This document shows positions 10,374-24,203 of a stretch of 64,000 nt of DNA, piece after piece (position 1 is the stretch's first letter; every line of letters starts with the position of its first letter). The position numbers and the translations under genes are program-made. Source of the stretch: Paraconexibacter algicola (GTDB taxonomy: Bacteria; Actinomycetota; Thermoleophilia; Solirubrobacterales; Solirubrobacteraceae). The notes beneath the pieces are model-generated. The model ran no database searches and was not told where the DNA came from. It was given only the letters and a program-made list of their open reading frames with translations. Where the stretch lies: NCBI RefSeq assembly GCF_003044185.1, contig NZ_PYYB01000001.1:1178001-1242000 (forward strand), in the 5' to 3' direction.

Positions 10374-10826
10374 TCAGGCGGCCTTCGCGCGGAGGTGACC
10401 CTGCAGGGCGATCTCGTCCAGGCGCACGCCCTCGGCGCGCGCGATCTCGAGGCGGTGCGCGGCGGCCTGGCGGTCGCGCAGCCGGTCGAGGACCTCGCGC
10501 TTGCGCGAGGCGGCGGTGACGACGGTGCGGCGCGCGTCGACCTCGGCGTCGGCCCGGTCGACCTCGAGCGCGGCGACCAGGCGCGTGCGCTCGAGCCGCT
10601 CCACGTACGCCTGGCGGGCGCGCAGGGCGGCGACGTCGACGGCCGCCTCGGCGGCGAGCGGTGCGGCGAAGCGGGCGGACTCGAGCTGCGCGGCGACGGC
10701 CTGCAGGCGCGCCTCGTGCCGCTCGCGGTGCGCGAGGCTGGCCGCCAGGGCCTCCTTCGCGCGGTCCTCGTCGTGGACGCGCACCCGGCGCACCCGCTCG
10801 AGACCGAAGTCGAACCGCTCCTTCAT
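10374..10826 (-). CDS. fliJ: Flagellar export chaperone FliJ
   Basis: A 150-residue, highly charged, fully helical protein that begins MKERFDFGLERVRRVR, as FliJ proteins do. FliJ is the central stalk of the FliI ATPase in the type III export apparatus. In most genomes fliJ follows fliI directly; here a plus-strand CHAP gene separates them. The ATG is only 8 nt from a sigma-28-like -10 element, so the transcript may be leaderless. The open frame upstream of this ATG crosses the promoter and is not coding. Confidence 0.85.
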   Translation of the reverse strand: MKERFDFGLERVRRVRVHDEDRAKEALAASLAHRERHEARLQAVAAQLESARFAAPLAAEAAVDVAALRARQAYVERLERTRLVAALEVDRADAEVDARRTVVTAASRKREVLDRLRDRQAAAHRLEIARAEGVRLDEIALQGHLRAKAA

Positions 10827-10834
10827 GACCGGGG

Positions 10835-10861
10835 TGGTCGGCGGGCCGCCGCGGGCGTGAA
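10835..10861 (-). promoter_or_regulatory. Sigma-28-like promoter of fliJ operon
   Basis: GCCGACCA (10842-10835, minus strand) is identical to the -10 element of the flgB and flgF promoters. It is preceded at 15 nt by TTCA rather than TCAA, so the -35 is poor. The palindrome at 10889-10904 lies just upstream and may compensate as an activator site. Confidence 0.5.
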
Positions 10862-10888: not shown

Positions 10889-10904
10889 TCCCCACTTCTG
10901 GGGA
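10889..10904. promoter_or_regulatory. 16-bp palindrome, putative flagellar operator (copy 1)
   Basis: TCCCCACTTCTGGGGA, the reverse complement of the copy at 23251. It is centred about 36 nt upstream of the fliJ -35 element, in the divergent space between fliJ and the CHAP gene. Confidence 0.6.
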
Positions 10905-11107
10905 TGGGCTCGAGCTGCGGTCCGCCGAGCGGGCTCCCGGGGGCCGGGAGCGCGGCGCCCCGCCCGGCCGGATCGTGAGGGTCCTCATGCGATGTGAGAA
11001 GTCCGTGAGGGCACCGCCACCCGCGGCGGCCGACGCGATTCACTCTGGGCCATCGGCGACCCGCGTCGCCGGTCACCGGCTCAGACCACTGCTCTCGGAG
11101 GACCCCC

Positions 11108-11941
11108 ATGCACCTGTCCAGGACCCAGGGGCGGCGCCGTGCGCTGCTCGCCACCACCACCGTCGCCGCCGCGCTGACGCTCGTCGGGGCCGCCGGCGCG
11201 AAGACCGCCGACGGCCCGACGGCGCGGGCGGCCGCCGCGCCCGGGACCGTGAAGGTCAACGCCGGCTACACGCTGGCGGTGCGCGCCACCCCGTCCAGCA
11301 GCGGCCGGGTAGTCCGCAAGCTCGCGAACGACACGAAGGTCCGCATCGTCTGCCAGACCCAGGGCGACCGGGTGACCGGCCGCTTCGGCACCTCGACGCT
11401 GTGGGACAAGCTGTCCGGCGGCGGCTACGTCTCCGACACCTACGTCTACACCGGCAGCGACCAGCGCGTCGCCCCGGACTGCGGCGGCTCCACCACGCCG
11501 GTGAACACGCAGCCCTCCCCCGCTCCGAGCAGCGGCCTGCCCGCGAGCGTGAAGCTCCGCGACGACTACCCGTACCCGACGCGCAGCTGGAACGGCGTCG
11601 ACCCGTGGAACTTCTACTTCCGCGAGTGCACGAGCTTCGTCGCGTACCGGATCAGCAAGGTCATCCGCGGCTTCGCCAACGGCTACAAGGGCGGCCGCTT
11701 CGGCAACGCGATGACCTGGGACGACAACGCCCGCAGGATCGGCATGAAGGTCGACCGCACGCCGAAGGTCGGCTCGATCATGGTCCGCAACTCCGGCCGC
11801 TACGGCCACGTCGCGATCGTCGCGAAGGTCGGCAGCGGCGGGAAGCGGATCTTCGTCGAGCAGTACAACGCCGGCGGCACGCACCGGTACTCCAAGGAGT
11901 GGCTGACCAGGACGTCGGTGATGACGTTCATCCACCCGTAG
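11108..11941 (+). CDS. Secreted CHAP-domain peptidoglycan hydrolase
   Basis: A 277-residue protein with a signal peptide (RRRALLATTTVAAALTLVGAAGA). A small SH3-like region follows (about 46-120: VNAGYTLAVRATPSSSG), then a Pro/Ser linker and a CHAP domain (about 165-272). The CHAP nucleophile is the Cys in RECTSFVAYR and the His lies in YGHVAIV. Such enzymes cut wall peptides or the amide link. GGAGG stands 6 nt before the ATG. It is inserted antisense between fliI and fliJ, so a role in flagellar passage is possible but unproven; general wall turnover is the alternative. Confidence 0.85.
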   Translation: MHLSRTQGRRRALLATTTVAAALTLVGAAGAKTADGPTARAAAAPGTVKVNAGYTLAVRATPSSSGRVVRKLANDTKVRIVCQTQGDRVTGRFGTSTLWDKLSGGGYVSDTYVYTGSDQRVAPDCGGSTTPVNTQPSPAPSSGLPASVKLRDDYPYPTRSWNGVDPWNFYFRECTSFVAYRISKVIRGFANGYKGGRFGNAMTWDDNARRIGMKVDRTPKVGSIMVRNSGRYGHVAIVAKVGSGGKRIFVEQYNAGGTHRYSKEWLTRTSVMTFIHP

Positions 11942-11968
11942 CGCCCGGCCGGGCCGGGTCCCGCCGCG

Positions 11969-13426
11969 TCAGACCGCGAGGTTGAGCGGCGGGATCGCGC
12001 TCGGCGAGGCCGCGTGCTGCGGGTCGGCCGGCAGGCCGACCGCGGGGTCGGCGGCCACCGACCCCTCGACGATCCCCGGCACGACGCCCGCTGCGCCCCC
12101 GACGACGGCGGCGAGCGCGGCGTCGGCCGCGAGCGCGTCCGGCCGCTCGTCGACCGTCTGCTTCAGGAACGCGTCGATCGCGGGCTTCAGGTCGATGGCG
12201 CGGTCGGCCACCGGGTCGGTCCCGCGCTCGTACGCGCCGATCGCGACGAGGTCGCGCTTGTCCTTCTCCGCGGCCATCAGCGCGCGCAGCTCCGTCGCCG
12301 CGGCGCGCGCCGCCGGGTCCATGATCTCCCCGACCAGGCGGGAGACGGACTGCAGGACGTCGACCGCCGGGTAGTGGCCCTGGTGGGCGAGCTCGCGCGT
12401 GAGGACGACGTGCCCGTCGAGGATCGAGCGGACCGCGTCGGCGATCGGCTCGTTCATGTCGTCGCCGTCGACGAGCACCGTGTAGAGCCCGGTGATCGAG
12501 CCGAGCGCGCTGGTGCCCGAGCGCTCCAGCAGCTTGGGCAGGAGCGCGAACACGCTGGGGGTGTAGCCGCGGGTCGCGGGCGGCTCCCCGATCGCCAGGC
12601 CGATCTCGCGCTGGGCCATCGCGAAGCGCGTCACCGAGTCCATCATCAGCAGCACGTCGGCGCCCATGTCGCGGAACGACTCGGCGATCGTCGTGGCGGT
12701 GAGCGCCGCCTTGATCCGCACGAGCGCGGGCTGGTCGCTCGTGGCGACGACGACCACGGAGCGCGCGAGACCCTCGGGCCCCAGGTCGCGGTCGAGGAAC
12801 TCGCGGACCTCGCGGCCACGCTCGCCGACGAGGCAGATGACGTTCACGTCCGCCTCGGTGGCCCGGGCGATCATGCCCAGCAGCGAGGACTTGCCCACGC
12901 CGGAGCCGGCGAAGATGCCGAGCCGCTGCCCGCGGCCGCAGGGGACGAGCGCGTCGAGCGCCCGGACCCCGAGCGACACGCGGTCGGTGATCCGCGGCCG
13001 CTCCATCGGGGACGGCGGGGACGCCTCGACGCTCGCGAGCACGAGGTCGTCGCCGAGCGCCAGCGGCGGACCGCCGTCGATCGGACGGCCGAGACCGTCC
13101 AGCACGCGGCCGAGCAGCGACGCGCCGGTCGGCACGCGCACCGGTGCGCCCATCGCGGTGACGCGGTCCCCGGGACCGATCCCGACGAGCTCGCCCAGCG
13201 GCATCAGCAGCGTGCGCCCGGCGCGGAAGCCGACGACCTCGGCGGGCGTCGGGGGTCGGTCGCGGCCGGTCTCGATCTCGCAGACCTCGCCGACCTCCGC
13301 CTCGAGGCCGGTGGCCTCGACGATCAGGCCGATCAGGTCGGTGACGCGTCCGCGGCGCCGGTGCAGGTCGGCGCGCCGGACGGTGGCGGCGTGCGCCCCG
13401 AGGCGCTCGGCGAGCCCGGCGGTCAC
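11969..13426 (-). CDS. fliI: Flagellum-specific ATP synthase FliI
   Basis: A 485-residue ATPase of the flagellar type III export apparatus. The Walker A motif AGSGVGKSS is at 173-181 and the Walker B region VLLMMDS at 258-264. ATRGYTPSVFA and YPAVDVLQSVSR are typical of FliI. The last 60 residues are an Ala/Pro/Val-rich extension. The start is GTG 13426, overlapping the fliH stop by 4 bp. It converges with the CHAP gene. Confidence 0.95.
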   Translation of the reverse strand: MTAGLAERLGAHAATVRRADLHRRRGRVTDLIGLIVEATGLEAEVGEVCEIETGRDRPPTPAEVVGFRAGRTLLMPLGELVGIGPGDRVTAMGAPVRVPTGASLLGRVLDGLGRPIDGGPPLALGDDLVLASVEASPPSPMERPRITDRVSLGVRALDALVPCGRGQRLGIFAGSGVGKSSLLGMIARATEADVNVICLVGERGREVREFLDRDLGPEGLARSVVVVATSDQPALVRIKAALTATTIAESFRDMGADVLLMMDSVTRFAMAQREIGLAIGEPPATRGYTPSVFALLPKLLERSGTSALGSITGLYTVLVDGDDMNEPIADAVRSILDGHVVLTRELAHQGHYPAVDVLQSVSRLVGEIMDPAARAAATELRALMAAEKDKRDLVAIGAYERGTDPVADRAIDLKPAIDAFLKQTVDERPDALAADAALAAVVGGAAGVVPGIVEGSVAADPAVGLPADPQHAASPSAIPPLNLAV

Positions 13427-14049
13427 GGGATCGCGGGGTCCTCGGCGGTGCGCGCGGCGAGCACGCCGTCGCGGACCGCCTCGCGGGCACGGTCGAGCTT
13501 CGTGGCGAGCGTCGCGTCGATCTCCCCCGCGACGGTGCGCACGAGCGCGCCGCCGCGCACCACGCGGCGCTCGGTCTGCACCTCGCAGTGCTCGATGCCG
13601 CCGAGCTGGGCGACGAGGTCCGGGACCGCGTCGCGGACGAGGTCGAGGTCGTCGGGGTGCACGAGCACGGTGACGCGCTCGCGCTCCACGAGGCAGCGCA
13701 GCGCGCCGCGCACGACGTCGACCACGAGCGCGGGGTGCGCGTCGAGCGCGCCGGCGAGGACCTGCTCGGCGATCGCGAACGCCAGCTCGACCGCCGCGTC
13801 CTCGGCCTCGCGGGCCAGGCCGTCGCGGACGGCGGCCACCTCGGCGGCCGCCTGCTGCAGCAGCCCGACGGCGGGGGCGACCGCGGCGTGCGCGTCGGCG
13901 CGGCCGGCGGCGAGCCCCTCGGCGTGCGCGGCCGCGCGGATCGCGTCGGCCTGGGCCTGCGCCTCGGCGACGAGGTCGCGGGTGCGGTGCAGCGCGGTCC
14001 CGGCGACGGGCTCCAGCGCCGGGAAGTCGAAGGCGGCGATCTCGGCCAT
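13423..14049 (-). CDS. fliH: Flagellar assembly protein FliH
   Basis: A 208-residue Ala/Glu-rich helical protein with the C-terminal FliH fold, recognisable in VTVLVHPDDLDLVRD and RVVRGGALVRTVAGEIDA. The N-terminal half carries the AxxxG/AxxxA helical spacing of FliH. FliH is the stator that links FliI to the C ring and holds it in check. Its ATG shares one base with the fliG stop and its stop overlaps fliI, a tight fliG-fliH-fliI arrangement. Confidence 0.88.
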   Translation of the reverse strand: MAEIAAFDFPALEPVAGTALHRTRDLVAEAQAQADAIRAAAHAEGLAAGRADAHAAVAPAVGLLQQAAAEVAAVRDGLAREAEDAAVELAFAIAEQVLAGALDAHPALVVDVVRGALRCLVERERVTVLVHPDDLDLVRDAVPDLVAQLGGIEHCEVQTERRVVRGGALVRTVAGEIDATLATKLDRAREAVRDGVLAARTAEDPAIP

Positions 14050-15125
14050 CAGATGACCTCGTCCTCGGCGTCCTCGCCGCCGCGGCCGAGCGTGATCGCC
14101 CCCGCCTCCTCGAGGCGGCGGATGGCGGCGACGACGCGGCCCTGCGCCTCCTCGACGACGGCGCGCCGCTGCGGCTGCGAGGTCTCGAGGTCCTCCTTGA
14201 GCATCTCCGCGCCGCGCGTGGACATGTTCGCGAAGATCCGCTCGGCGACCTCGGCCCCGACGCCGCGCAGCGCGGTCCCGAGGTCCTTCTGGTCGACCTC
14301 GCGCAGCACCAGCTGGATGTCGCGGTCGGACAGGACGACGATGTCGTCGAAGGTGAACAGCCGCTGGCGGATCTCGTCGGCGAGGTCCTGGTCGTGCTCG
14401 GCGACGGCCTGCAGGACGTTGCGCTCGGTCGACCGGCCGGCCCGGTTGAGGATCTCCGCGAGCGAGTCGACGCCACCGGCCGACGAGAACTCCTGGGTGA
14501 GGACGTTGGCGAGCTTCAGCCGCAGGCCGCGCTCGATGTCCTCGACGACGCCGGGGTTCGTGTCGCTCATCGTGGCGATCCGCAGCGCCACGTCGGCCTG
14601 GGCGTCGGGCGGCAGCGCGGCGAGCACCTTCGCGCCGAGCGTCGTGTGCAGCGAGGCGACGACGAGCGCCTGGGTCTGGCGGGCCTCGTCGGCGAGGAAC
14701 GTGGCGATCTGCTCGGGCGGCGTCTTGCGCAGGAAGTCGAACGGGCGCAGCTCCGCCGAGGCGGCGAGCGACCCGATGATCTCCTCGGCGCGCTCCTCCC
14801 CCAGCAGGTGGACGAGCACCTCGCGGGCGAACTCGGGGCCGCCGATCGCGTAGTAGTCCTTGGCGCTGAACTGCTCGGCGAGCTCGGCGATGACCGCGCG
14901 GGTCGTCTCCGCCTTGACGCGCCACATCGACGCCATCTCCGCCGACAGCGCCTCGACCTCGCGCTCGGTGAGGTGGCGCAGGATCTCGGCGGCGCGCTCG
15001 GAGCCGATCGAGATGAGGAAGATCGCCGCCTTCTGCCGGCCGTTGAGCCCGTTGAGGAGGATCCGGTCCTCCTGCGTGACGAGCTGGATCTCGGTGTTGA
15101 CCGCGACCGCCGTGCTCGTGGACAT
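14049..15125 (-). CDS. fliG: Flagellar motor switch protein FliG
   Basis: A 358-residue FliG. The N-terminal domain starts LNGRQKAAIFLISIGSERAAEIL and binds FliF. The middle domain is seen in PFDFLRKTPPEQIATFL. The C-terminal torque domain contains the charged helix FTFDDIVVLSDRDIQLVLRE, whose Arg and Asp residues face the stator. It begins directly after the fliF stop codon. An acidic tail ends the protein. Confidence 0.96.
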   Translation of the reverse strand: MSTSTAVAVNTEIQLVTQEDRILLNGLNGRQKAAIFLISIGSERAAEILRHLTEREVEALSAEMASMWRVKAETTRAVIAELAEQFSAKDYYAIGGPEFAREVLVHLLGEERAEEIIGSLAASAELRPFDFLRKTPPEQIATFLADEARQTQALVVASLHTTLGAKVLAALPPDAQADVALRIATMSDTNPGVVEDIERGLRLKLANVLTQEFSSAGGVDSLAEILNRAGRSTERNVLQAVAEHDQDLADEIRQRLFTFDDIVVLSDRDIQLVLREVDQKDLGTALRGVGAEVAERIFANMSTRGAEMLKEDLETSQPQRRAVVEEAQGRVVAAIRRLEEAGAITLGRGGEDAEDEVI

Positions 15126-16700
15126 CTACTTGTCCTCCGTGATCCAGGCGCGCAGCTGACCGGCGACCCGCTCGGGCTCGCGGGCGACGAGCTCCTCGAG
15201 CGCCATCGCGCGCGGGTCGTTCTTGAACACGCTGAGCGCCTCGTCGGGCGGCGACAGGTCGATCGGGTCCATCTCCTTGCGCGGCGCGGGCAGCGCGGCG
15301 TGCCCCTCGACGACCGGCAGCGCGCGCAGCCAGCTCGGCTCGTCGGCGAACGGGTCCGCCTCGCGGCGGCGCAGGTGCCGGGTGACGAAGAAGAGGAACA
15401 GCAGCGCGCCGAGGCCGATCGCGACCGCCTTGACGATCCCCTGCATGCCGACGGGGATCGGCAGCGGGCCGGCCGCGGGCGCCGGGGTCGCGGCGGGCGT
15501 GGCGGCGAACGCGACCTGGCTGACGGCGAGCGTGTCGCCGCGCGTGGCGCGGATGCCCGCCGCGGAGGTGAGGGCGGTGCGCAGCGCGGCGACGTCGGCG
15601 GCGGGGACCTTCTTGTCGACGACGACGGCGACGTCGAGGCGCTGCACCGTGCCGGGCGCGACCTTCGTGCGGGTGACGGTCTTGTCGACGCCGAGGTCGC
15701 GCTGCGCGGTCGTCTTGCGGTAGTTGGAGTTGCCGCCCGCGGCGCCGCCGCCGGCCGCGTAGGTCGGGATGTTCGCCGCGGTGCCCGCGGTCGCACCGGT
15801 GCCGCCGCCCTGGCTGGTCAGCGTCTCGGTCTCGGTGGTCTCCTTCAGCGGCGTGCCGCGGCGCGCGTACTGGAGCTTCTCCTGCGTGGACTCGCTGAGG
15901 TCGAGGTCGGCGGCGACCTGCACGGTCGCCTTGCCGGGCCCGAGGGTGCGGACGAGCAGCGCGTCGAGGGAGGACTCGAGCTGCGCGGCGTAGCGGGCCT
16001 CCGCGGCGGGCTTGCCGAGCGTGCCGCCGCCGTCACCGGCCATGCCGGTGCCGTCGCCCTGCGGCCAGACGAGCTGCCCGGCACCGTCGGTGATCGTGAC
16101 CTTCTTGGGGTCGAGGTCCGGGACGGAGGACGCGACGAGGTTCGCGATCCCGCGGATGGCGGACGGCTCGAGCTCCTCGGCCTTGCCGGTGAGCAGGACC
16201 GCGGCGGTGGCGGGCTTCGCCTCGTCGGCGAACAGCTCGTCCTTGGGGAGCGTCAGGCGCACCTGGGCGCCGCCGACCCCGTCGATCGTGCCGAGCGTCT
16301 GGGCGATCTGGCCCTCGAGGGCGCGCTGGTAGGCGACCTGCTGCTGGAACGAGGAGGCGCCGAGCTTCTGCTTGTCGAGCAGCTCGAAGCCGGGCTGCTT
16401 CGGCGCGCCGGAGGTGACGACGCCGGCGGAGGCGAGCGCCATCCGCGCGTCGGTCTCCATGCCCTTCTCGACCGCGAGCTCGGTGCCGCCGCGACGGATC
16501 TCGTACTTCACCCCGGCGGCGTCGAGCGCGCCGGTGACCTTCGTGGTCTCGGCCGGGTCCATGCCCGCGGCGACCGTCGAGTAGCTCGGGGCCCCCGCGA
16601 TCTTCAGCAGCAGGAACGCGACGACCACGAACGCCAGCGCGCTCGCGGCGATCGTGATCTTGCCCCGGGTGGACATGGTCGTGAGGAGCTGCGTGGGCAT
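15126..16700 (-). CDS. fliF: Flagellar MS-ring protein FliF
   Basis: A 524-residue membrane protein with two transmembrane segments, about 14-35 (ITIAASALAFVVVAFLLLKI) and 424-446 (AVAIGLGALLFLFFVTRH). The periplasmic ring-building region lies between them. The C-terminal tail (LEELVAREPERVAGQLRAWI) is the FliG-binding segment. FliF forms the base of the flagellum in the membrane. The stop codon abuts the fliG ATG. Confidence 0.95.
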   Translation of the reverse strand: MPTQLLTTMSTRGKITIAASALAFVVVAFLLLKIAGAPSYSTVAAGMDPAETTKVTGALDAAGVKYEIRRGGTELAVEKGMETDARMALASAGVVTSGAPKQPGFELLDKQKLGASSFQQQVAYQRALEGQIAQTLGTIDGVGGAQVRLTLPKDELFADEAKPATAAVLLTGKAEELEPSAIRGIANLVASSVPDLDPKKVTITDGAGQLVWPQGDGTGMAGDGGGTLGKPAAEARYAAQLESSLDALLVRTLGPGKATVQVAADLDLSESTQEKLQYARRGTPLKETTETETLTSQGGGTGATAGTAANIPTYAAGGGAAGGNSNYRKTTAQRDLGVDKTVTRTKVAPGTVQRLDVAVVVDKKVPAADVAALRTALTSAAGIRATRGDTLAVSQVAFAATPAATPAPAAGPLPIPVGMQGIVKAVAIGLGALLFLFFVTRHLRRREADPFADEPSWLRALPVVEGHAALPAPRKEMDPIDLSPPDEALSVFKNDPRAMALEELVAREPERVAGQLRAWITEDK

Positions 16701-16706
16701 GGAGGG

Positions 16707-17039
16707 CTACACCTGGGTTCGCATGACGTCGCTGATCGCGTCGACGGCCTTCGTGCGCAGCTGCGCGGCGAGCTGCATCGCCAGCTGCGCCCGCTCGACG
16801 GCGACGACGACCTGGGAGGGATCGGTCGCGGTGCCGTCGGCGAGGCTGCGGGAGGCCTTGGCGGCGTCGTTCTGGAGGGATTCGAGCTTCTGGATCTGGT
16901 CGCCGAGCATGCCGCCGAAGCCGCCGCCACCGCCGACGCCACCGGCCGCGCCGGTGCCACCGCCGCCGACCGCGTCGGCCTCGGTGATCGAGGGGATCTG
17001 CCACTCGGCGGCCGCCCCGGCCAGTGCCTCGATCGGCAT
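16707..17039 (-). CDS. fliE: Flagellar hook-basal body protein FliE
   Basis: A 110-residue protein. Residues 26-44 are a Gly-rich stretch; the C-terminal half (VVVAVERAQLAMQLAAQLRTK, ending in VMRTQV) is the conserved FliE helix that joins MS ring and rod. The ATG overlaps the flgC stop by one base, in the usual flgB-flgC-fliE-fliF order. Confidence 0.92.
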   Translation of the reverse strand: MPIEALAGAAAEWQIPSITEADAVGGGGTGAAGGVGGGGGFGGMLGDQIQKLESLQNDAAKASRSLADGTATDPSQVVVAVERAQLAMQLAAQLRTKAVDAISDVMRTQV

Positions 17040-17494
17040 CAGCGCAGGAGGTCGAGGGTGCGGGTGAACATGGACTTCGCCGTCTGCATGGCGGTCGCGT
17101 TGGCCTCGTAGGCGCGCGAGGAGCTGATGAGCTCGACCATCTCGGTGACGGTGTTGACGTTGGGCAGCTCGACGTAGCCGTCCTGGCCGGCGTCGGGGTG
17201 GCCCGGGTCGTAGACGCGCCGGTTGGGCGCGCTGTCCTGCACGATCGCCGCGACCTGCACGCCGCGTGAGGGCGCGGCGCCGGTGCGGCCCATGGCGCCC
17301 TCGAGGGCGGAGGCGAAGGTCGCGCGGGCGCCGCCCGCGGCCTCCTGGAGGACGACCTCCTTGCGGCGGTACGGCTGGCCGTCCGCGCCGCGGGTGGTCT
17401 GCGCGTTGGCGAGGTTCTCGGACGTGACGTCCATGCGCAGGCGCTCGGCGCTGAGGCCACTGCCCGCGATGTCGATGGCGTCGAACAGGCCCAT
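17039..17494 (-). CDS. flgC: Flagellar basal-body rod protein FlgC
   Basis: A 151-residue rod protein. It begins MGLFDAIDIAGSGLSAERLRMD with SENLANAQT, and ends with the rod/hook motif NVNTVTEMVELISSSRAYEANATA. DPGHPDAGQDGYVELPNVN is diagnostic of FlgC. It starts 8 nt after flgB. No strong ribosome site is visible, so it may rely on coupling to flgB. Confidence 0.95.
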   Translation of the reverse strand: MGLFDAIDIAGSGLSAERLRMDVTSENLANAQTTRGADGQPYRRKEVVLQEAAGGARATFASALEGAMGRTGAAPSRGVQVAAIVQDSAPNRRVYDPGHPDAGQDGYVELPNVNTVTEMVELISSSRAYEANATAMQTAKSMFTRTLDLLR

Positions 17495-17502
17495 GGGAGG
17501 AC

Positions 17503-17862
17503 TCAGCGGTTCCCGATCGCGGACTGGATGATCCCGGTGCGCGCCTTCGTGACCGCGACGAGCGCCTGGTACATGAGGCCGTTGCGGGCCTGGCCGGCCG
17601 CCTCGACGTCCATGTCGACGGAGTTGCCGTCGATGCGGACCGGGGCCGACGCGTCGGTGCGCTGCACGATCGCGGTGCGCCGGACGGCGTCGCGGTCGTC
17701 GGCGGCCATCGCGGCGGAGAGCTGGCCCTCGAAGTCGACCTCCTGGCGGCGGTAGCCGGGGGTGTTGACGTTCGCGATGTTCTGCGCGATCGCCGTCTGC
17801 CGCTGCGAGGTGCCGTGCATGGCGGCCTCGAGGGCGAGCTGGGTGGTGTCGAAGAGCTGCAC
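17503..17862 (-). CDS. flgB: Flagellar basal-body rod protein FlgB
   Basis: A 119-residue rod protein: LFDTTQLALEAAMHGTSQRQ, then AQNIANVNTPGYRRQEVDFE, with a C-terminal helix ending in IIQSAIGNR. The chosen start is GTG 17862, preceded at 8 nt by AAGGA. It is the first gene of the flgB-to-fliI operon, with a sigma-28-like promoter 85 nt upstream. Confidence 0.93.
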   Translation of the reverse strand: MQLFDTTQLALEAAMHGTSQRQTAIAQNIANVNTPGYRRQEVDFEGQLSAAMAADDRDAVRRTAIVQRTDASAPVRIDGNSVDMDVEAAGQARNGLMYQALVAVTKARTGIIQSAIGNR

Positions 17863-17946
17863 GGATGGCGTCCTTGGGTGGTGCACCCCTGCCGCCCGTC
17901 CTGGGCTGGTGGTGCGGCGACCGCCGTCCGTGGAGGTCACTCGGGG

Positions 17947-17973
17947 TGGTCGGCCCGGACGCCCGCGGGTTGA
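17947..17973 (-). promoter_or_regulatory. Sigma-28-like promoter of flgB operon
   Basis: Minus-strand TCAA (17973-17970), 15 nt and GCCGACCA (17954-17947). The predicted leader before flgB is about 75 nt. The 16-bp palindrome at 18005 lies about 40 nt upstream of the -35. Confidence 0.72.
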
Positions 17974-18004
17974 GCGCGACACCTGTCGCAGTGGACGCGC
18001 GGCC

Positions 18005-18020
18005 TCCCCAGAACTGGGGA
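18005..18020. promoter_or_regulatory. 16-bp palindrome, putative flagellar operator (copy 2)
   Basis: TCCCCAGAACTGGGGA, a perfect inverted repeat with 7-bp arms and a 2-nt centre, upstream of the flgB promoter. It differs by one base from the copies at 10889 and 23251. Confidence 0.6.
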
Positions 18021-18114
18021 CCCCCGGCGCGTGGCGCGGGCGGCGGCACGGGGCGCCCCGGCCCGGTCGGGGCCACGGGCGCGAGCGCGCGCCCACGAGG
18101 GCGGGCCGCGCGGC

Positions 18115-18414
18115 TCAGGCGGCGGCGCGGGCGTAGCCCGCGGCGGCGCTGCGGCCGCGGTGCAGGCCACCGAGCTGGGCGCGGGCGGCGGCGACGGCGT
18201 CGCCGAGCGCGAGCGTCACGAGCTGCTGGGTGCCGGCGGCGCGCTCGAGCGCGGCGCGGTCCTCGGGCCGCAGCCCGGCCGGGGCGAGGTCCATCAGGCG
18301 GCCCATGAGCGCCTCGCGGCGCACGTGGAGCGCGTCGAGCTCGTCGGCGCGACCGTCGAGGACGAGCGCGAGCTCCTCCTCGGCGAGCGCGGCGAGGGCG
18401 ACCGCGGGGCTCAC
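18115..18414 (-). CDS. FliT-like small helical chaperone
   Basis: A 99-residue, Ala/Leu/Arg-rich helical protein starting at GTG 18414, which overlaps the fliS stop by 4 bp. By position (flaG-fliD-fliS-this gene) and by its all-helical, Glu/Arg-rich make-up it corresponds to FliT, the export chaperone of the FliD cap. The sequence itself is too weakly conserved to prove this; FlgN-like or another helper is possible. Confidence 0.5.
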   Translation of the reverse strand: MSPAVALAALAEEELALVLDGRADELDALHVRREALMGRLMDLAPAGLRPEDRAALERAAGTQQLVTLALGDAVAAARAQLGGLHRGRSAAAGYARAAA

Positions 18415-18836
18415 GCGACCATCGGCGGGAGCGACCCGCCGCCACCGGGGGTGGTGCCGCCGGGCTGGCTGCCCGCGGCGAGCTGCGCCCACGCGTCGCG
18501 CAGGTCGTCGAGCAGCCGGATGACGGTGCGGAGCTTGTCCGCGTCGCGCTCCAGGCGCGCCTCGATCATCTGCCGCTTGCAGTAGACGTAGATCGCCTGG
18601 AGGCGCTCGGCGAGCTCGCCGGCGTCCATGTTCAGCGTCGCGAGCAGCTCGTCGACGATCGCCTCCGCGCGGGTCAGGCGGTCGCCGCCGTGCTTCCACG
18701 CGCCCTCGCCGAAGGCGGCCTCGGTCTGGCGCAGGAAGCGCAGCGCCCCGTCGTAGAGCATCACGACGAGCTGCTCGGGGGACGCGGTCAGGACGCTGCT
18801 CTCGCGGTACGCGGCGGGTCGGGCGTACGGGTTCAT
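18411..18836 (-). CDS. fliS: Flagellin export chaperone FliS
   Basis: A 141-residue FliS. It begins MNPYARPAAYRESSVLTASPEQL, where the YxxxxVxTASPEQL pattern is diagnostic; VVMLYDGALRFL and LNMDAGELAERLQAIYVYC follow. FliS binds the flagellin C-terminus and stops it polymerising in the cytoplasm. The last 25 residues are a Gly/Pro-rich tail. It lies 51 nt after fliD. Confidence 0.94.
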   Translation of the reverse strand: MNPYARPAAYRESSVLTASPEQLVVMLYDGALRFLRQTEAAFGEGAWKHGGDRLTRAEAIVDELLATLNMDAGELAERLQAIYVYCKRQMIEARLERDADKLRTVIRLLDDLRDAWAQLAAGSQPGGTTPGGGGSLPPMVA

Positions 18837-18887
18837 GGGGCGGAGGCCTCCGTGGTGTCGGTCGGGGTGAGACGCATGGCGGTCGGG

Positions 18888-20237
18888 CTAGGCCTGGCCG
18901 AGCGCGCCGAGCAGGTTGGACTGCTGGCTCTGGCTGCGGGACAGGGCGGTCTCCAGCGCGGCGAACTGCTTGCGCAGCAGCTCCTCGCGGCTGGCCAGGC
19001 GGGAGTCGAGGCGGCTCATCGCGTCCTTCAGGCGCGTGACCTCGCTGCCCGCCGCGGTGGCCGCGCCCTCGATCGTGCCGCCGACCTGGGTGGCCGGGGT
19101 GAGGGCGCCCTCGAAGCGCTGGGCGAAGCCGTCGACCCCGCCGCCGCCCAGGAGGCGCCGCACGGCGGTCGGGTCCGCGGCGAGCGTGGCGGCGAGCTTC
19201 GTGGTGTCGAGCTTGAGCTTGCCGGCCACGGCGTCGGCGCTGAACGTCGCGGAGCCGGTGGCGTCCCCCGTGGTGATGCCGAGGTCGGCGAGCGCGTCGG
19301 TGGCCTCCGGGTTGCCGGAGACGACCGCGCCGATCTGCCCGCGGAGGTTCGAGAGGATCCCCTGCAGCGCCGGGTCGCCGAACAGCGCGCCCTTGCGCGC
19401 GTCGGCGGAGGTGGACGCGTCCGGGACGCGCTTCTCGGTGAGCTTGCCGCGGACCGTGTCGACGGTCGCGTTGTAGGCGTCGATGAACGCCTTGAGCTTC
19501 TCGGTGATCGCGGCGGTGTTCGGCGCGGGCGCCCCGGCGGTCACGGTGACCTCGCCGGCGGTGACGGCCTTGAGCGTCAGCTCGACGCCGGGGACGGCGG
19601 TGGTGACGACGTTGGAGGACGCGGTGCCGGGGACGCCGTCGACGGTGAACTGGGCGTCCAGGCCGGCCTTCGCCTTGCCGGTGTCCTCGACGAGCCCGGC
19701 TCCGGAGGCGGTGATCGTGGCGGCGGCCCCGGTGGTCTTGCCGGAGAGGACGAGCTGCCCGCCGACGTTGACGGCGTACACGCCCGCGTCGGCGGAGGCG
19801 TTGATCGCGGCGACGGCGTCGTCGAGCGTCGCGCCGGCGGTGAGGTCGACGGTGGTCGAGCCGATCGTCAGCTGCGAGGTGCCGGCCTGCGGGGTGAACG
19901 CGTAGGTGCGCTGGGGTGCGCGCGCGAGCTGCCCGACCTCCAGGCGCACCCCGCCGGGGGCGGCGCCGGCGATCTGGCGGGCGGTGATCTTCGTGGTGTC
20001 GGAGCTCTCGACGGTCTGGGTCTCGCCCCAGGTGGCGGCGGAGCGCAGCGCGACCGCCGCGGTCTGCAGGGCGCTGAGCTTGCCCTTGACCTCGTTCCAG
20101 CCGTCCTGGCGGGCCTGGGCGGCCGCCTGCCGCAGCTGCAGGCGGACCTTGCCGTTGCCCTCCACGGCCATCATCGAGCTGATGATGGACTCGGTGTCGA
20201 GCCCGGACGCCATGCCGCTGAAGCTGATCGGGCTCAC
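18888..20237 (-). CDS. fliD: Flagellar filament capping protein FliD
   Basis: A 449-residue cap protein. The N-terminal part (ISFSGMASGLDTESIISSMM) is the FliD signature, with the coiled-coil helix that follows. The C-terminal helix (LKDAMSRLDSRLASREELLR, then SRSQSQQSNLL) is also typical. FliD sits on the filament tip and folds incoming flagellin. The start is GTG 20237, overlapping the flaG stop by 4 bp. Confidence 0.94.
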   Translation of the reverse strand: MSPISFSGMASGLDTESIISSMMAVEGNGKVRLQLRQAAAQARQDGWNEVKGKLSALQTAAVALRSAATWGETQTVESSDTTKITARQIAGAAPGGVRLEVGQLARAPQRTYAFTPQAGTSQLTIGSTTVDLTAGATLDDAVAAINASADAGVYAVNVGGQLVLSGKTTGAAATITASGAGLVEDTGKAKAGLDAQFTVDGVPGTASSNVVTTAVPGVELTLKAVTAGEVTVTAGAPAPNTAAITEKLKAFIDAYNATVDTVRGKLTEKRVPDASTSADARKGALFGDPALQGILSNLRGQIGAVVSGNPEATDALADLGITTGDATGSATFSADAVAGKLKLDTTKLAATLAADPTAVRRLLGGGGVDGFAQRFEGALTPATQVGGTIEGAATAAGSEVTRLKDAMSRLDSRLASREELLRKQFAALETALSRSQSQQSNLLGALGQA

Positions 20238-20596
20238 GCCGCGTCGCCCCCCTGTCGGCGGCCGGGCGCGCCGGTCCCGAGGGCGGTGACGACCTCCGCG
20301 GGCGGGACCGCGCGCAGCACGCGGCCCTCGAGGTCGCAGAGGGCGATGACGAGCCGGCCGTCGAGGTGACCGTCGTCGAAGACGATCTGGTGGCCGTCGT
20401 CGTGCAGCTCCTCGAAGAGGCGGTTGGCGGCCTCGACCTCGGCCCAGACGTCGGCGGGGATGTCCCCCGGGACGGCGGGCTCGTCGGCGAACGCCGGCGC
20501 GGTCAGCGCGGCCTTGACCGCCTCGCGGTCGGCGCGCCGCGCCCGGGCGGCGGCGAGGTCGTGGACCTGGGCGACGTGTCCTGTGGTGAAGCTCAT
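20234..20596 (-). CDS. flaG: FlaG-family flagellar protein
   Basis: A 120-residue protein. The C-terminal half has the FlaG pattern: QIVFDDGHLDGRLVIALCDL then GRVLRAVPPAEVV. FlaG proteins influence filament length and are usually encoded just before fliD, as here. AGGAGG stands 9 nt before the ATG at 20596. A sigma-28-like promoter lies about 60 nt upstream, so this gene heads the flaG-fliD-fliS operon. Confidence 0.83.
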   Translation of the reverse strand: MSFTTGHVAQVHDLAAARARRADREAVKAALTAPAFADEPAVPGDIPADVWAEVEAANRLFEELHDDGHQIVFDDGHLDGRLVIALCDLEGRVLRAVPPAEVVTALGTGAPGRRQGGDAA

Positions 20597-20654
20597 GCCG
20601 ATCCCTCCTGGATCTCCGGGCGACCCGTCCGTGGGTCGTGTCCGCGCCTTCCGG

Positions 20655-20681
20655 TGATCGGTGTCCCCGGGGCGCCCTTGA
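20655..20681 (-). promoter_or_regulatory. Sigma-28-like promoter of flaG-fliD-fliS operon
   Basis: Minus-strand TCAA (20681-20678), 15 nt and ACCGATCA (20662-20655). This is one of the two best matches to the FliA -10 element in the window. Confidence 0.75.
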
Positions 20682-20747
20682 GCGACCCCCTGGACGTTCG
20701 GTCGAGGGGCGGCGGGCAGCTGGATGTGGCGCGCGTACGGCACGCGC

Positions 20748-23201
20748 TCAGCCGGCGGGCTGGAGGTCGGGGGTGCCGGCGCGCAGGCGGCGCGCCTCGT
20801 CGGCGAGCGCCCGCGCGTCGTCGTCCAGGCCGCGGGCGACGGCGACCTCGCTGAGCCCCTCGAACGCGCGCGCGTCGGGGCCGGCGTGCTCCACGACGGC
20901 GATCCACTCGTCGGCGGCGGACTCCAGGAAGCCGCGGCGCAGGTACAGCCGGGCGAGCGCCTCGCGGCGTTCGCGCCAGGGCGCGTCGACGGCGTCGAGC
21001 ACGGGCGCGAGCCGCTCGAAGGCGTCGAACTGCTCCAGGCGCGCGAGCGCGTCGAGCATCGTCAGCACCGGCGGGCCGGCGGCGGCGGGCAGCGTCCCGG
21101 CGGCGGGGGTCGCGGCGGGCGCGTCGCGCCAGGCGCGCAGGGCGGCGACCTCGGCGGCGGGCAAGCCGACCGCCGCGGCGGCGTCGAGCTGCGCGTCGGC
21201 GACCGCGGTGCCCGCGGCGAGGCGGCAGAACAGGGCGGTGCGGGCCGCGGCGTCGGCGCACGAGGCGTCGGCGGGCACCTCCTCGGCGACGGTGCGGGCC
21301 CCGTCGAGGTCCCCGCTGGAGAGCAGCGCCTCGGCGAGGATCGCGCGGGCGGGGTGCGCGCCGGGCTGGGCGTCGAGCACGCGACGCAGCAGGGTCGCGG
21401 CAGTGCCCACGGCGCCGTGCTCGAAGCAGGCGATGCCGACGAGGAACGCGGCGGTCGGGGCGAGCGGGCCGCCGAGCGCCTCGATCTCGGAGACGACCGC
21501 GTCGCCGGGCCGGCCGGCGCGCAGGAGCACGAGGGCGAGCTGCTCGATCGTGCCGAGGTAGCCGGGGTGGTCGACGAGCGCGGTGCGCAGCAGCTGCTCG
21601 GCGGCGGCGAGGTCGCCCTGGTCGCGGCGGACCTCGGCGAGCGCGCACGCGGCCATCGAGGTGCCGCAGCCGACGGTGGCGCTGTAGCGGCTGGGCGCGT
21701 CGCCCATCTCCTGGCAGCGGGCGAAGAGCTCGGCGGCGCGGTCGAGGTCGCCGCGCGCGCGGGCACTGAAGCCCTGCTCGTAGACGACGTCGGTGAAGCC
21801 GGGCAGGAAGCCGAGGATCTCCGCGGCGACCGCGTCGACCTCCTCGAGGCGGCCGGTGACGCGCAGGGACTTCACGTAGCGCGCGGCGAGCGACGGGACG
21901 TACCCGTAGCTGCTGCGGCCCGGGTCGCTGCGCAGCGCGGCCCACGCGTGCGCGAAGCGGTCGTGCGCGCGCTCGTTCTCGCCGGCGGCGGCGTACTCGC
22001 TGCCGAGGTTGAAGGCGAGGAACGGGGTGTCGACGCCCTCCGCGGCCTGCTGCTCGAGCAGCTCGATGTTGCGGCGCGACTTGCCCTTCGCGTCGCGCAC
22101 GGCTCCGAGGTAGCCGAAGTGCTCGACGCGCACGGGGGTCCGCTCGATCCGCTCGGCGAGGTAGCCGGGGAGGTGGTGGGCGATCTGCTCGTGGACGCGG
22201 CCCTCGAAGCGGTAGGCCGGACGGTTGCGGAACACGCGCAGCGCGTCGTGGGTGACGGCGGTGCCGTCCTCGAGGTCGCCGGTGTGGTTGACCTCGACGA
22301 GGTAGAACGCCTCGCGCCAGGTGCGGCCGGTGAGGGCGCGCAGCGCGGCGACGTCCTCCTCGATCAGCACCTCGTCGGCGTCGAGGTAGAGGAGCCAGTC
22401 GCCGGTGGCGGCGTCGAAGCTGACGTTGCGGGCGGCGGCGAAGTCCCCGGTCCACTCGTGGTGCAGGATCCGCGCGCCGTGCTCGCGCGCGATCTCGACG
22501 GTGCGGTCGGTGGAGCCGGTGTCGACGACGACGATCTCGTCGACGGCGTCGCGCACGGCGGCCAGGCAGCGGCCGAGCATCGCCTCCTCGTCCTTGACGA
22601 TCATGCACAGCGAGAGCGTCAGGCCCTCGGCGGGACGGGCGCGCGCGGCGACGCGGCGGGCGCGCTCGTCGAGCGTGCGCAGCGCGGCGGTGACGGCGGG
22701 CGGCAGGCCGGGCATGCGGGTGAGCCCGGCGGCCTTGCGGCGGGCGACCTCGCGCAGGTTGCCGGCGGCGTGCGGCAGCTCGGGGTCGAGCCGCAGCGCG
22801 GCCTCGAACAGGCGGGTGGCGGGGCGCAGCGCCCCGAGCTCGTAGAGCGCGACGCCCGCCCAGTTGAGCAGCAGCGGCTCGCGCGGGTCGTCCTCGAGCA
22901 GCTCGAGCGCCGCGTCGGCGACGGCGGCGAACACGGGCGCGACGACGGCGATCGCCGAGCCGTGGACGCCCAGTCCGGCCTGCAGGAGCGCGGAGCGCGC
23001 CTCCCAGCGGCGGTGCGGGTCCTCGACGTGCGCGGCCTCGCCGAACAGGCCCCGGTAGGCGGCGACGTCGCGGCGCGCGAGCAGCGCCTGCGCGCGCGGG
23101 ACGAGCAGCGCGGCGGGTGTCGCGCGCGCCTGCGGAACGGGCGGCAGCGCGATACCGGTCCGCTCGGACGGATCGGGCGAGGACGTGAGGCGGAGGGCCA
23201 T
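20748..23201 (-). CDS. TPR glycosyltransferase (family 2), putative flagellar glycosylation enzyme
   Basis: An 817-residue protein. Residues 30-180 and 430-810 are TPR-like helical repeats rich in Ala and Leu. Between them is a GT2 domain (about 195-420) starting LSLCMIVKDEEAML, with DTGSTD at 227-232 and the metal-binding DAD at 274-276 (LYLDADEV). Similar TPR-GT2 enzymes glycosylate proteins. Its place between flaG and fliA and its own sigma-28-like promoter suggest flagellin or another flagellar protein as substrate, which is inference. The ATG is 8 nt from the -10 element, so the mRNA is probably leaderless. Confidence 0.85.
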   Translation of the reverse strand: MALRLTSSPDPSERTGIALPPVPQARATPAALLVPRAQALLARRDVAAYRGLFGEAAHVEDPHRRWEARSALLQAGLGVHGSAIAVVAPVFAAVADAALELLEDDPREPLLLNWAGVALYELGALRPATRLFEAALRLDPELPHAAGNLREVARRKAAGLTRMPGLPPAVTAALRTLDERARRVAARARPAEGLTLSLCMIVKDEEAMLGRCLAAVRDAVDEIVVVDTGSTDRTVEIAREHGARILHHEWTGDFAAARNVSFDAATGDWLLYLDADEVLIEEDVAALRALTGRTWREAFYLVEVNHTGDLEDGTAVTHDALRVFRNRPAYRFEGRVHEQIAHHLPGYLAERIERTPVRVEHFGYLGAVRDAKGKSRRNIELLEQQAAEGVDTPFLAFNLGSEYAAAGENERAHDRFAHAWAALRSDPGRSSYGYVPSLAARYVKSLRVTGRLEEVDAVAAEILGFLPGFTDVVYEQGFSARARGDLDRAAELFARCQEMGDAPSRYSATVGCGTSMAACALAEVRRDQGDLAAAEQLLRTALVDHPGYLGTIEQLALVLLRAGRPGDAVVSEIEALGGPLAPTAAFLVGIACFEHGAVGTAATLLRRVLDAQPGAHPARAILAEALLSSGDLDGARTVAEEVPADASCADAAARTALFCRLAAGTAVADAQLDAAAAVGLPAAEVAALRAWRDAPAATPAAGTLPAAAGPPVLTMLDALARLEQFDAFERLAPVLDAVDAPWRERREALARLYLRRGFLESAADEWIAVVEHAGPDARAFEGLSEVAVARGLDDDARALADEARRLRAGTPDLQPAG

Positions 23202-23209
23202 GCCCAGGG

Positions 23210-23236
23210 TGGTCGGACAGCCGACGGCGCCTTTGA
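23210..23236 (-). promoter_or_regulatory. Sigma-28-like promoter of the TPR glycosyltransferase gene
   Basis: Minus-strand TCAA (23236-23233), 15 nt and TCCGACCA (23217-23210). Only 8 nt separate it from the start codon. Palindrome copy 3 lies about 22 nt upstream of the -35. Confidence 0.68.
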
Positions 23237-23250
23237 GTTCGTGGACGTCC

Positions 23251-23266
23251 TCCCCAGAAGTGGGGA
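23251..23266. promoter_or_regulatory. 16-bp palindrome, putative flagellar operator (copy 3)
   Basis: TCCCCAGAAGTGGGGA in the divergent space between the glycosyltransferase and fliA genes, so it could act on both. It matches copy 1 exactly on the opposite strand. Confidence 0.6.
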
Positions 23267-23387
23267 TGGAGACATTCGACACACGGACGACGCAAATACC
23301 AAGAAGCGGGGATATCGCTCCTAGCACATGGGGCCGACACTCTCCCTGTCCCCGCCGGTCACGCAGCCACAAAGGACCAACGAACCC

Positions 23388-24203
23388 ATGCAGCAGGTCA
23401 CCAGCAAGCCCCACCGCCGACTGTCCTCCGAGGACGCGCTGGCGCTGTGGAAGGAGTACCGCCGGACCGAGGATCGCGCGCTGCGCGACCGCCTCGTCCT
23501 CACCTTCGCGCCGCTCGTGAAGTACATCGTCTACAAGAAGGTCCGCGAGATGCCGGCCCGCTGCGAGGTGGAGGACTTCATCTCCTGCGGCCTCGAGGCG
23601 CTGATCCAGTCGATCGACCGCTACGACCCGGTGAAGGGCGCGACGCTCGAGCAGTACGCGTGGACGCGGATCCACGGTGCGGTGCTCGACGAGCTGCGCC
23701 GCCAGGACTGGGCGCCGCGTTCGGTCCGCCGCTGGGAGCGCGACATGGAGAAGGCCGCCGACGAGTTCACGACGCTGCACGGCCGCCGCCCGAAGACCGA
23801 GGAGCTCGCCGCCGCGATGGGGGTCACGGCCGCCGAGCTGCGCCGCAAGCGCGACGAGGTCACCCAGTCCGACGTCACCTCGCTGAACACGACGGTGATG
23901 AGCGACGACGAGACGACGATCGAGCGCCTGGACACGATCGCGTCCAAGGACGAGCGCCTGGACCCGATCCACATGGCAGCGACCGACGAGGCGAAGACGA
24001 AGTTCCGCGCCGCGTTCGCCCGGCTGCCCAGGCGCGAGCGCGAGGTCGCCGTGCTGCTCTACGTGAAGAACATGACGCTGGCCGAGATCGGCGACATCCT
24101 CGGGGTCAGCGAGTCGCGCGTCTGCCAGATCCACGGCGCGATGAAGAAGACGCTGCGCGCGGCGCTCGACGCCGACGAGGCGCTGTTCAAGGCCGTCGCC
24201 TGA
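23388..24203 (+). CDS. fliA: Flagellar sigma factor FliA (sigma-28, WhiG family)
   Basis: A 271-residue sigma factor lacking region 1. Region 2 contains FAPLVKYIVYKKVREMP, CEVEDFISCGLEALIQSIDRY and ATLEQYAWTRIHGAVLDELR, all typical of FliA/WhiG. Region 3 has RRPKTEELAAAMGV. Region 4.2 is the HTH LAEIGDILGVSESRVCQIH. It should read the TCAA-N15-nCCGA(T/C)CA promoters of this window. The ATG at 23388 is chosen for AAGGA 11 nt upstream; an in-frame ATG at 23328 has no such site. No FlgM anti-sigma gene is evident here. Confidence 0.94.
   Translation: MQQVTSKPHRRLSSEDALALWKEYRRTEDRALRDRLVLTFAPLVKYIVYKKVREMPARCEVEDFISCGLEALIQSIDRYDPVKGATLEQYAWTRIHGAVLDELRRQDWAPRSVRRWERDMEKAADEFTTLHGRRPKTEELAAAMGVTAAELRRKRDEVTQSDVTSLNTTVMSDDETTIERLDTIASKDERLDPIHMAATDEAKTKFRAAFARLPRREREVAVLLYVKNMTLAEIGDILGVSESRVCQIHGAMKKTLRAALDADEALFKAVA

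What the first reader, a model, noticed from the sequence alone, without database searches (positions are those of the whole stretch)
10889..23266. One 16-bp palindrome in three flagellar promoter regions: operator of an unknown motility regulator
TCCCCAGAA(C/G)TGGGGA occurs at 10889-10904, 18005-18020 and 23251-23266, and I found it nowhere else in the window. Each copy lies 22-40 nt upstream (centre to -35) of a sigma-28-like promoter: fliJ operon, flgB operon and the glycosyltransferase; the last is also in the divergent fliA region. Three near-identical perfect palindromes in these positions are far from chance and suggest an activator or repressor acting with FliA. I know of no described flagellar operator with this sequence.
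Basis: partly seen in the sequence, partly recalled or inferred. Interest (0 to 1): 0.82.

Follow-up and report, generated by a model that had tools for sequence, protein, structure and literature searches.

The report
Conserved flagellar operator, unknown regulator
A 16-base mirror-image DNA sequence next to flagellar genes in an actinobacterium is very probably a conserved docking site for an unidentified control protein, chiefly in front of the gene for the flagellar sigma factor, and was found only in one bacterial family.

Summary
TCCCCAGAASTGGGGA occurs at the three stated places and nowhere else in the window; the genome has four copies. It is not chance: 39 copies (pattern TCCCCASWWSTGGGGA) against 0 of the reversed control in 146 genomes of the family, none outside the family (0 of 86 genomes; 0 of 387). 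The third site is the conserved one: a palindrome with at most 2 arm mismatches lies 97-155 bp upstream of fliA in 20 of 20 loci from six genera, against 2 of 42 loci of other genera; on a FliA tree the 20 fall in one supported group of 22. Its polarity flips between orthologues and unselected flanks extend it to TGGGGA[T/G]G, so a dimer probably reads it as double-stranded DNA. A weaker second copy sits at fixed spacing from a sigma-28-like -10 lacking a -35, suggesting activation of fliA. Two reader claims fail: the fliJ and flgB copies were found only in this genome, and the targets go beyond flagella (prepilins, c-di-GMP enzymes, a receiver protein, unrelated genes). The regulator is unidentified; a MerR-GAF candidate was rejected.

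The parts
23251..23266 (.). distal operator in the fliA / glycosyltransferase divergent region (the conserved copy)
   Evidence: 20 of 20 fliA loci of six genera with at most 2 arm mismatches
23276..23288 (+). TGGACG-N-ATGTC-like element (here TCGACACACGGAC), 9 bp after the operator; role unknown
23297..23312 (+). proximal, degenerate operator TACCAAGAAGCGGGGA, 46 bp (start to start) from the distal one
   Evidence: start to -10 is 37 bp
23334..23340 (+). sigma-28-like -10 of fliA (CCGACAC; CCGATAC in most relatives), no CTCAA -35
23388..24203 (+). fliA (FliA/WhiG-type sigma factor)
   Evidence: Pfam Sigma70_r2/r3/r4
23211..23237 (-). sigma-28-like promoter of the glycosyltransferase gene, CTCAA-N16-CCGACC
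20748..23201 (-). glycosyltransferase family 2 + TPR protein (817 aa)
   Evidence: Pfam
18005..18020 (.). operator copy upstream of flgB
   Evidence: not seen in the other 23 of 24 flgB loci compared
17948..17974 (-). sigma-28-like promoter of flgB, CTCAA-N16-CCGACC (conserved)
17503..17862 (-). flgB (start codon chosen by eye, uncertain)
   Evidence: Pfam Flg_bb_rod on the longer frame 17503-18096
10889..10904 (.). operator copy upstream of fliJ
   Evidence: not seen in the other 15 of 16 fliJ loci compared
10835..10861 (-). weak sigma-28-like promoter of fliJ, CTTCA-N16-CCGACC
   Evidence: read by hand
10374..10826 (-). fliJ
   Evidence: Pfam FliJ

Best explanation
The palindrome is the operator of a dimeric DNA-binding protein that I could not find in the flagellar stretch examined. 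Its most widely kept target is the divergent promoter region of the flagellar sigma gene fliA and a glycosyltransferase gene, in one group of one family. Shown by sequence: conservation, position, symmetric use of either strand (extended half-site TGGGGA[T/G]G), and a second weaker site whose start lies, in most loci where both are seen, exactly 37 bp before a sigma-28-like -10 that has no -35. Inferred: a dimer on the strong distal site helps a second dimer onto the weak proximal site, which ends where the -35 should begin (centre about -42), and so activates fliA in the manner of a class II activator; the level of FliA then sets the flagellar operons. In the window's genome two further copies stand before flgB and fliJ, and the same protein probably also acts at some prepilin, flagellin, c-di-GMP-enzyme, chemotaxis and unrelated genes.
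For: 39 copies of TCCCCASWWSTGGGGA versus 0 reversed controls in 146 genomes; TCCCCAGAASTGGGGA in 18 of 232 genomes of the order, all in the family, and in 2 of 396 phylum-wide, both in the family. fliA upstream: 20 of 20 loci of genera g1, g3, g5, g7, g9, g24 (15 perfect arms, 4 with one mismatch, 1 with two), against 2 of 42 loci of other genera (L119 one mismatch, L085 two) (Fisher 2.5e-14, relatedness ignored). The 20 FliA rows lie in a supported group of 22 (99/97), the other two being g13, without the site (52 of the 62 loci used). Orientation of the GAA centre differs between orthologous sites, which speaks against a strand-specific RNA element. Flanks that were not searched for: T or G next to the arm in 100 of 118 half-sites, then G in 75 of 118 (59 sites; p 6e-15 and 8e-9; orthologous sites are not independent). 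An element beginning TACC, TCCC or TACT 36-38 bp before CCGA[TC]A in 24 of 62 loci, 22 of them at exactly 37 bp.
Against: No protein-DNA or expression data; the regulator is unknown; activation is inferred from position only. On the glycosyltransferase side a mismatch-free CTCAA-N14/17-CCGA was found in 9 of 20 loci, 11-169 nt from the palindrome, which fits no single activator geometry. No proximal site was recognised in 4 of 20 loci (L077 and the three g24 loci), and some of the other 16 are loose. At the WS/DGAT-like gene of two genomes the site overlaps a CCGATAC-like -10 (L167, L191), and at a receiver gene it lies by the start codon (L170, L192): both look more like repressor positions. 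With the 18-mer and 3 mismatches allowed, the window's genome has 17 strand-matches against 10 controls, so weak sites there are little above background (G114: 13 against 3). Two genomes with the motif lack FliF (G003, 64% complete, and G004).
Confidence: 0.6

Rival explanations
1. The operator is that of a repressor of fliA and the glycosyltransferase gene: a dimer between the two divergent promoters, or a loop between distal and proximal sites, blocks both.
For: Where a proximal site was recognised (16 of 20 loci) the distal-proximal distance is 44-48 bp, or 36 bp in one, which suits cooperative binding; some non-flagellar sites overlap a -10-like sequence or the start codon.
Against: The proximal element stands at a constant distance from the -10, abutting the place of a missing -35, typical of activator-dependent promoters.
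Confidence: 0.25
2. The operator belongs to a global (metabolic or stress) regulator for which fliA is one of many targets; that three copies fall in the flagellar cluster of this window is partly happenstance.
For: Sites recur in three to six genomes each beside a stand-alone receiver gene, in the gap between an ilvB-like gene and ppx, near WS/DGAT-like genes, before a small ORF near ftsZ and before a MerR-GAF gene (gene names by eye). With up to 2 mismatches, 20 genomes give 153 strand-matches against 20 controls (GAAC copies count on both strands; 4 of the 20 genomes have only 1-2).
Against: 15 of the 39 copies are at fliA, and 20 of the 30 outside genome G020 are at flagellar or prepilin genes (my tally); the fliA site is the only one I saw in all six genera.
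Confidence: 0.4
3. Some or all copies are transcription terminators or pieces of a dispersed repeat rather than operators.
For: The fourth copy of the genome (C2:380683, L060) is the core of a longer hairpin (6 further paired bases on each side) at a gene end, and 6 of 9 copies in genome G020 lie beside GGGGTC[A/T]GACCCC, a seventh beside a variant of it.
Against: The three window copies have no stem extension (0 bp), two of them lie between divergent genes, and the fliA copies lie upstream of promoters.
Confidence: 0.05

Closest known systems
MalT of Actinoplanes sp. SE50/110 and of E. coli (LuxR-family activators; PMC7567727, passages seen)
   Same: A palindromic site overlapping the -35 region, about 34 nt from motif end to start site; the E. 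coli MalT box quoted there, GGGGA(T/G)GAGG, begins like the half-site TGGGGA[T/G]G found here; the proximal fliA site ends 21 bp before the -10.
   Different: The Actinoplanes consensus TCATCC-N5-GGATGA is a different sequence; the E. coli boxes are repeats of one asymmetric box; targets are other genes; no regulator has been identified here.
[quoted passage not shown]
   Same: A FliA/WhiG-type sigma with TAAA / GCCGATAA promoters and, in Rubrobacter, type IV pilus and c-di-GMP-enzyme genes as targets.
   Different: That switch controls sigma activity by protein binding; the palindrome is a DNA site upstream of the sigma gene. 'Palindrom' does not occur in that paper's text.
TcrA and BldD control of flagella in Actinoplanes missouriensis (recalled, nothing read)
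   Same: Actinobacterial flagellar regulators acting with FliA-type sigma factors.
   Different: As recalled, their sites do not match this palindrome; not tested.

Membership tests
Sigma-28 (FliA/WhiG) promoter | -35 CTCAA/TAAA, 15-16 bp spacer, -10 GCCGAT-like | tested here: met
   flgB: CTCAA-N15/16-CCGA without mismatch in 19 of 24 loci, window included; glycosyltransferase side of the window without mismatch. Not met by the fliA promoter, which has the -10 but no CTCAA
Operator of a dimeric transcription factor | inverted repeat used in either orientation, conserved at orthologous promoters | tested here: met
Operator of a dimeric transcription factor | a protein binds it | not testable with these tools
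   needs EMSA or pull-down
MalT-type (LuxR family) operator | GGGGA(T/G)GAGG boxes or TCATCC-N5-GGATGA | tested here: not met
   agreement for GGGGA(T/G)G only; bases further out show little preference
Operator of the MerR-GAF regulator | regulator present wherever the operator is present | tested here: not met
   no match at E 1e-10 in the four g9 and two g7 genomes, whose fliA regions carry the site; upstream sites in 3 of 30 loci examined, all g5
Intrinsic terminator | long G+C stem at a gene end | tested here: not met
   stem extension beyond the 16-mer is 0 bp at the three window sites; 6 bp at the fourth genomic copy, L060

The most novel reading that the evidence does not exclude
A family-specific master regulator of undescribed DNA specificity sets the level of the flagellar sigma factor from a two-site operator and couples flagella, type IV pili and c-di-GMP turnover. 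Its proximal fliA site is older (a variant stands at the same 37-bp distance in Conexibacter and two other genera) and the strong distal palindrome was added once: a flagellar master switch caught while being rewired.
Probability: 0.35. Interest if true: 0.65.

Novelty: new member of a known kind. Interest (0 to 1): 0.5.

Why it matters
My paper searches (open-access library only) listed no flagellar regulator or operator for these bacteria. The operator gives a DNA bait that could identify the regulator in one pull-down, and the fliA region gives a natural series of promoter states (proximal element only; proximal plus distal; palindrome missing in g13) for studying how a flagellar hierarchy is rewired.

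Tried and rejected
MerR-GAF protein as the regulator: paired sites upstream of it in G005 and G011 and one in G006 suggested autoregulation, but it was not found (E 1e-10) in the g7 and g9 genomes that carry the fliA site, and of 30 MerR-GAF loci examined only those three have a site within 2 arm mismatches in the 260 bp upstream; the window's own genome (L140) has none. Rejected.

Receiver protein as the regulator: a site stands by it in G000, G114, G005, G011 and G003 (bioB beside it in the first four, by eye), but in G000 Pfam finds only a receiver domain in 132 aa, and three of the others are of similar length. It is a target.

Regulator inside the flagellar cluster: clustering predicted genes of 15 flagellar loci gave flagellar, chemotaxis and unnamed proteins; I recognised no transcription factor, by eye and against the flagellar queries, not by a Pfam scan of every cluster. 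The prepilin regions of G000 and G008 were looked at by eye only.

RNA element: at Rfam's gathering scores, 7 sources gave one match, a tRNA in L168, and none in the window. CRP, CsoR, BldD and other operators were considered from memory only. RamA motifs are given as GGGG/CCCC runs with one free base on either side (PMC4847777, passages), too loose to test.

Literature: no paper held at least two of five motif strings; a paper with only one would not have been listed. Searches on Thermoleophilia, Solirubrobacter and Conexibacter (listings only) gave nothing on this site.

Not examined: 8 of the 70 genomes with a fliA match (G055, G063, G066, G067, G111, G124, G127, G132, all of other genera) were not fetched; G010, G117 and G119, flagellated members of g5 and g1, had no fliA match at the threshold, so their fliA regions are untested.

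Full report
The three copies are real and not chance. TCCCCAGAASTGGGGA stands at 10889, 18005 and 23251 and, within 3 mismatches, at one more place, 23297. Markov sequences built from the window gave no copy of the arms. The window's genome (4.74 Mb, 6 contigs) has four copies of this motif and a fifth with perfect arms but another centre (C2:631907). In 146 genomes of the family 18 have TCCCCASWWSTGGGGA, 39 places in all (recounted), and the reversed control has none. In the order 18 of 232 genomes have TCCCCAGAASTGGGGA, all in the family, so 0 of 86 others; in a spread of 396 genomes of the phylum 2 have it, both among the 9 of the family, so 0 of 387 others.

Where the copies are. 15 of the 39 places lie between fliA and a divergent glycosyltransferase/TPR gene. 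fliA has a match in 70 of 146 genomes. I fetched 60 regions and with the window and L054 measured up to 330 bp before fliA in 62 loci. In the 42 other loci L119 has a one-mismatch and L085 a two-mismatch match, at 69 and 40 bp from the start; the rest have three or more. A FliA tree of 52 of the 62 loci (10 of other genera left out) puts the 20 in a supported group of 22; the two extra rows are g13 (one of them a Patulibacter MAG), which has lost the site or never had it.

It seems to act as double-stranded DNA. The centre is GAAG or GAAC in nearly all copies, so each site has a polarity, yet orthologous fliA sites carry it in either direction. In 59 non-redundant sites (12 of 71 left out: the G020 repeat and two terminator-like loci) the bases outside the searched 16 are not random: T or G follows the arm in 100 of 118 half-sites and G comes next in 75 of 118. 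The protein therefore reads at least TGGGGA[T/G]G on each side.

The fliA promoter has a second site. Start to start 44-48 bp from the distal palindrome (36 bp in L064) lies a poorer 16-mer, often TACC...GGGGA, which I recognise in 16 of 20 loci, loosely in some. Over all 62 loci, 33 have CCGA[TC]A in the 170 bp before fliA, and 24 of these have TACC, TCCC or TACT 36-38 bp before it, 22 at exactly 37 bp (about three would be expected by chance at all eight offsets tried, my estimate from base composition). The rule misses L064, L065, L076, L081, L094 and L101, whose proximal site or -10 departs from it. 14 of the 24 belong to g10 (Conexibacter), g12 and g23, where the element reads for instance TACCCCAAATCGGTGAT or TACCCCAATCGGGCTAT and no distal palindrome was found. 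The proximal element thus looks older than the palindrome. It ends 21 bp before the -10, where flgB has its CTCAA; fliA has none there. This is the ground for the activator reading. That the Conexibacter-type element binds the same protein, or any protein, is inference.

flgB and fliJ. In the window both have the palindrome upstream of a sigma-28-like promoter. Over 24 flgB loci the promoter is kept without mismatch in 19, but only the window has the palindrome; the best others have 2-3 mismatches with other centres 57-67 bp from the start (L073-L076, L085 and others). Of 16 fliJ loci only the window has it; L073 and L075 have two-mismatch matches 200-243 bp upstream. Among these loci four others at flgB and one at fliJ are of the window's genus.

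Other targets (gene names by eye unless Pfam is named). Near prepilin-like genes in the window's genome (one mismatch; N_methyl by Pfam) and in G008 (two perfect sites); upstream of flagellin genes in G139 (perfect; Pfam) and G140 (one mismatch); upstream of a GGDEF-EAL protein in G020 (perfect; Pfam) and an EAL protein in G114 (one mismatch; Pfam); with two mismatches upstream of a HDOD protein in G114 and a chemotaxis receptor in G140 (Pfam). But sites also recur beside a stand-alone receiver gene (five genomes), in the gap between an ilvB-like gene and ppx (six), near a WS/DGAT-like gene (four), before a small ORF near ftsZ (three) and before a MerR-GAF gene (three). I looked at about 80 relaxed sites (up to 2 mismatches); many have no recurrent neighbour, as background would give. 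Perfect copies go with FliF: 16 of 62 flagellated genomes against 2 of 84 (Fisher 4e-5, relatedness ignored). With 3 mismatches on the 18-mer the window's genome is little above control (17 against 10).

The regulator. None was identified. The MerR-GAF protein and the receiver were tested and rejected. Half-site and -35 position resemble MalT-type LuxR-family activators (PMC7567727, passages); this is a lead only.

Verdict.

Noticed in passing
L043, L045, L046, L047 (two), L048; variant in L042 (genome G020): 6 of 9 copies in G020 stand beside GGGGTC[A/T]GACCCC, a seventh beside GGGGACTGTCCCC: a dispersed repeat that contains the operator sequence, or an unrelated palindromic element.
   Followed up: partly
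L060:3084 (G000:C2:380683) and L183:2994 (G008): Terminator-like hairpins with the same core and flanking complementarity, at the ends of what look like related secreted-protein genes.
   Followed up: no
L168:3015-3144, L171, L179, L196: The gap between an ilvB-like gene and ppx holds an operator, a TACAAC-like -10 and a strong G+C hairpin further on: possibly an unannotated small RNA under the same regulator, or just a shared terminator.
   Followed up: partly
window 23276-23288 and fliA regions of several genera: TGGACG-N-[A/G]TGTC, partly palindromic, recurs 9 bp from the operator at many fliA loci and near it at ppx, also in genera without the palindrome; may be a second operator or a -35.
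   Followed up: no
window 10826-10840 and 23201-23216: The sigma-28-like -10 of fliJ and of the glycosyltransferase gene lies within about 10 nt of the ATG, which suggests leaderless transcripts.
   Followed up: no
L250 (contig CAMCUD010000038.1; same length as contig C38 of G141): A MAG titled Bifidobacterium breve carries a fliA locus 75% identical to the window's and next to Svornostia's on the tree: probably a mislabelled bin.
   Followed up: no
L124-L126 (G011, G005, G006): A MerR-GAF gene divergent from a SigB/F-like sigma gene has one or two operators in between, in one genus only.
   Followed up: yes
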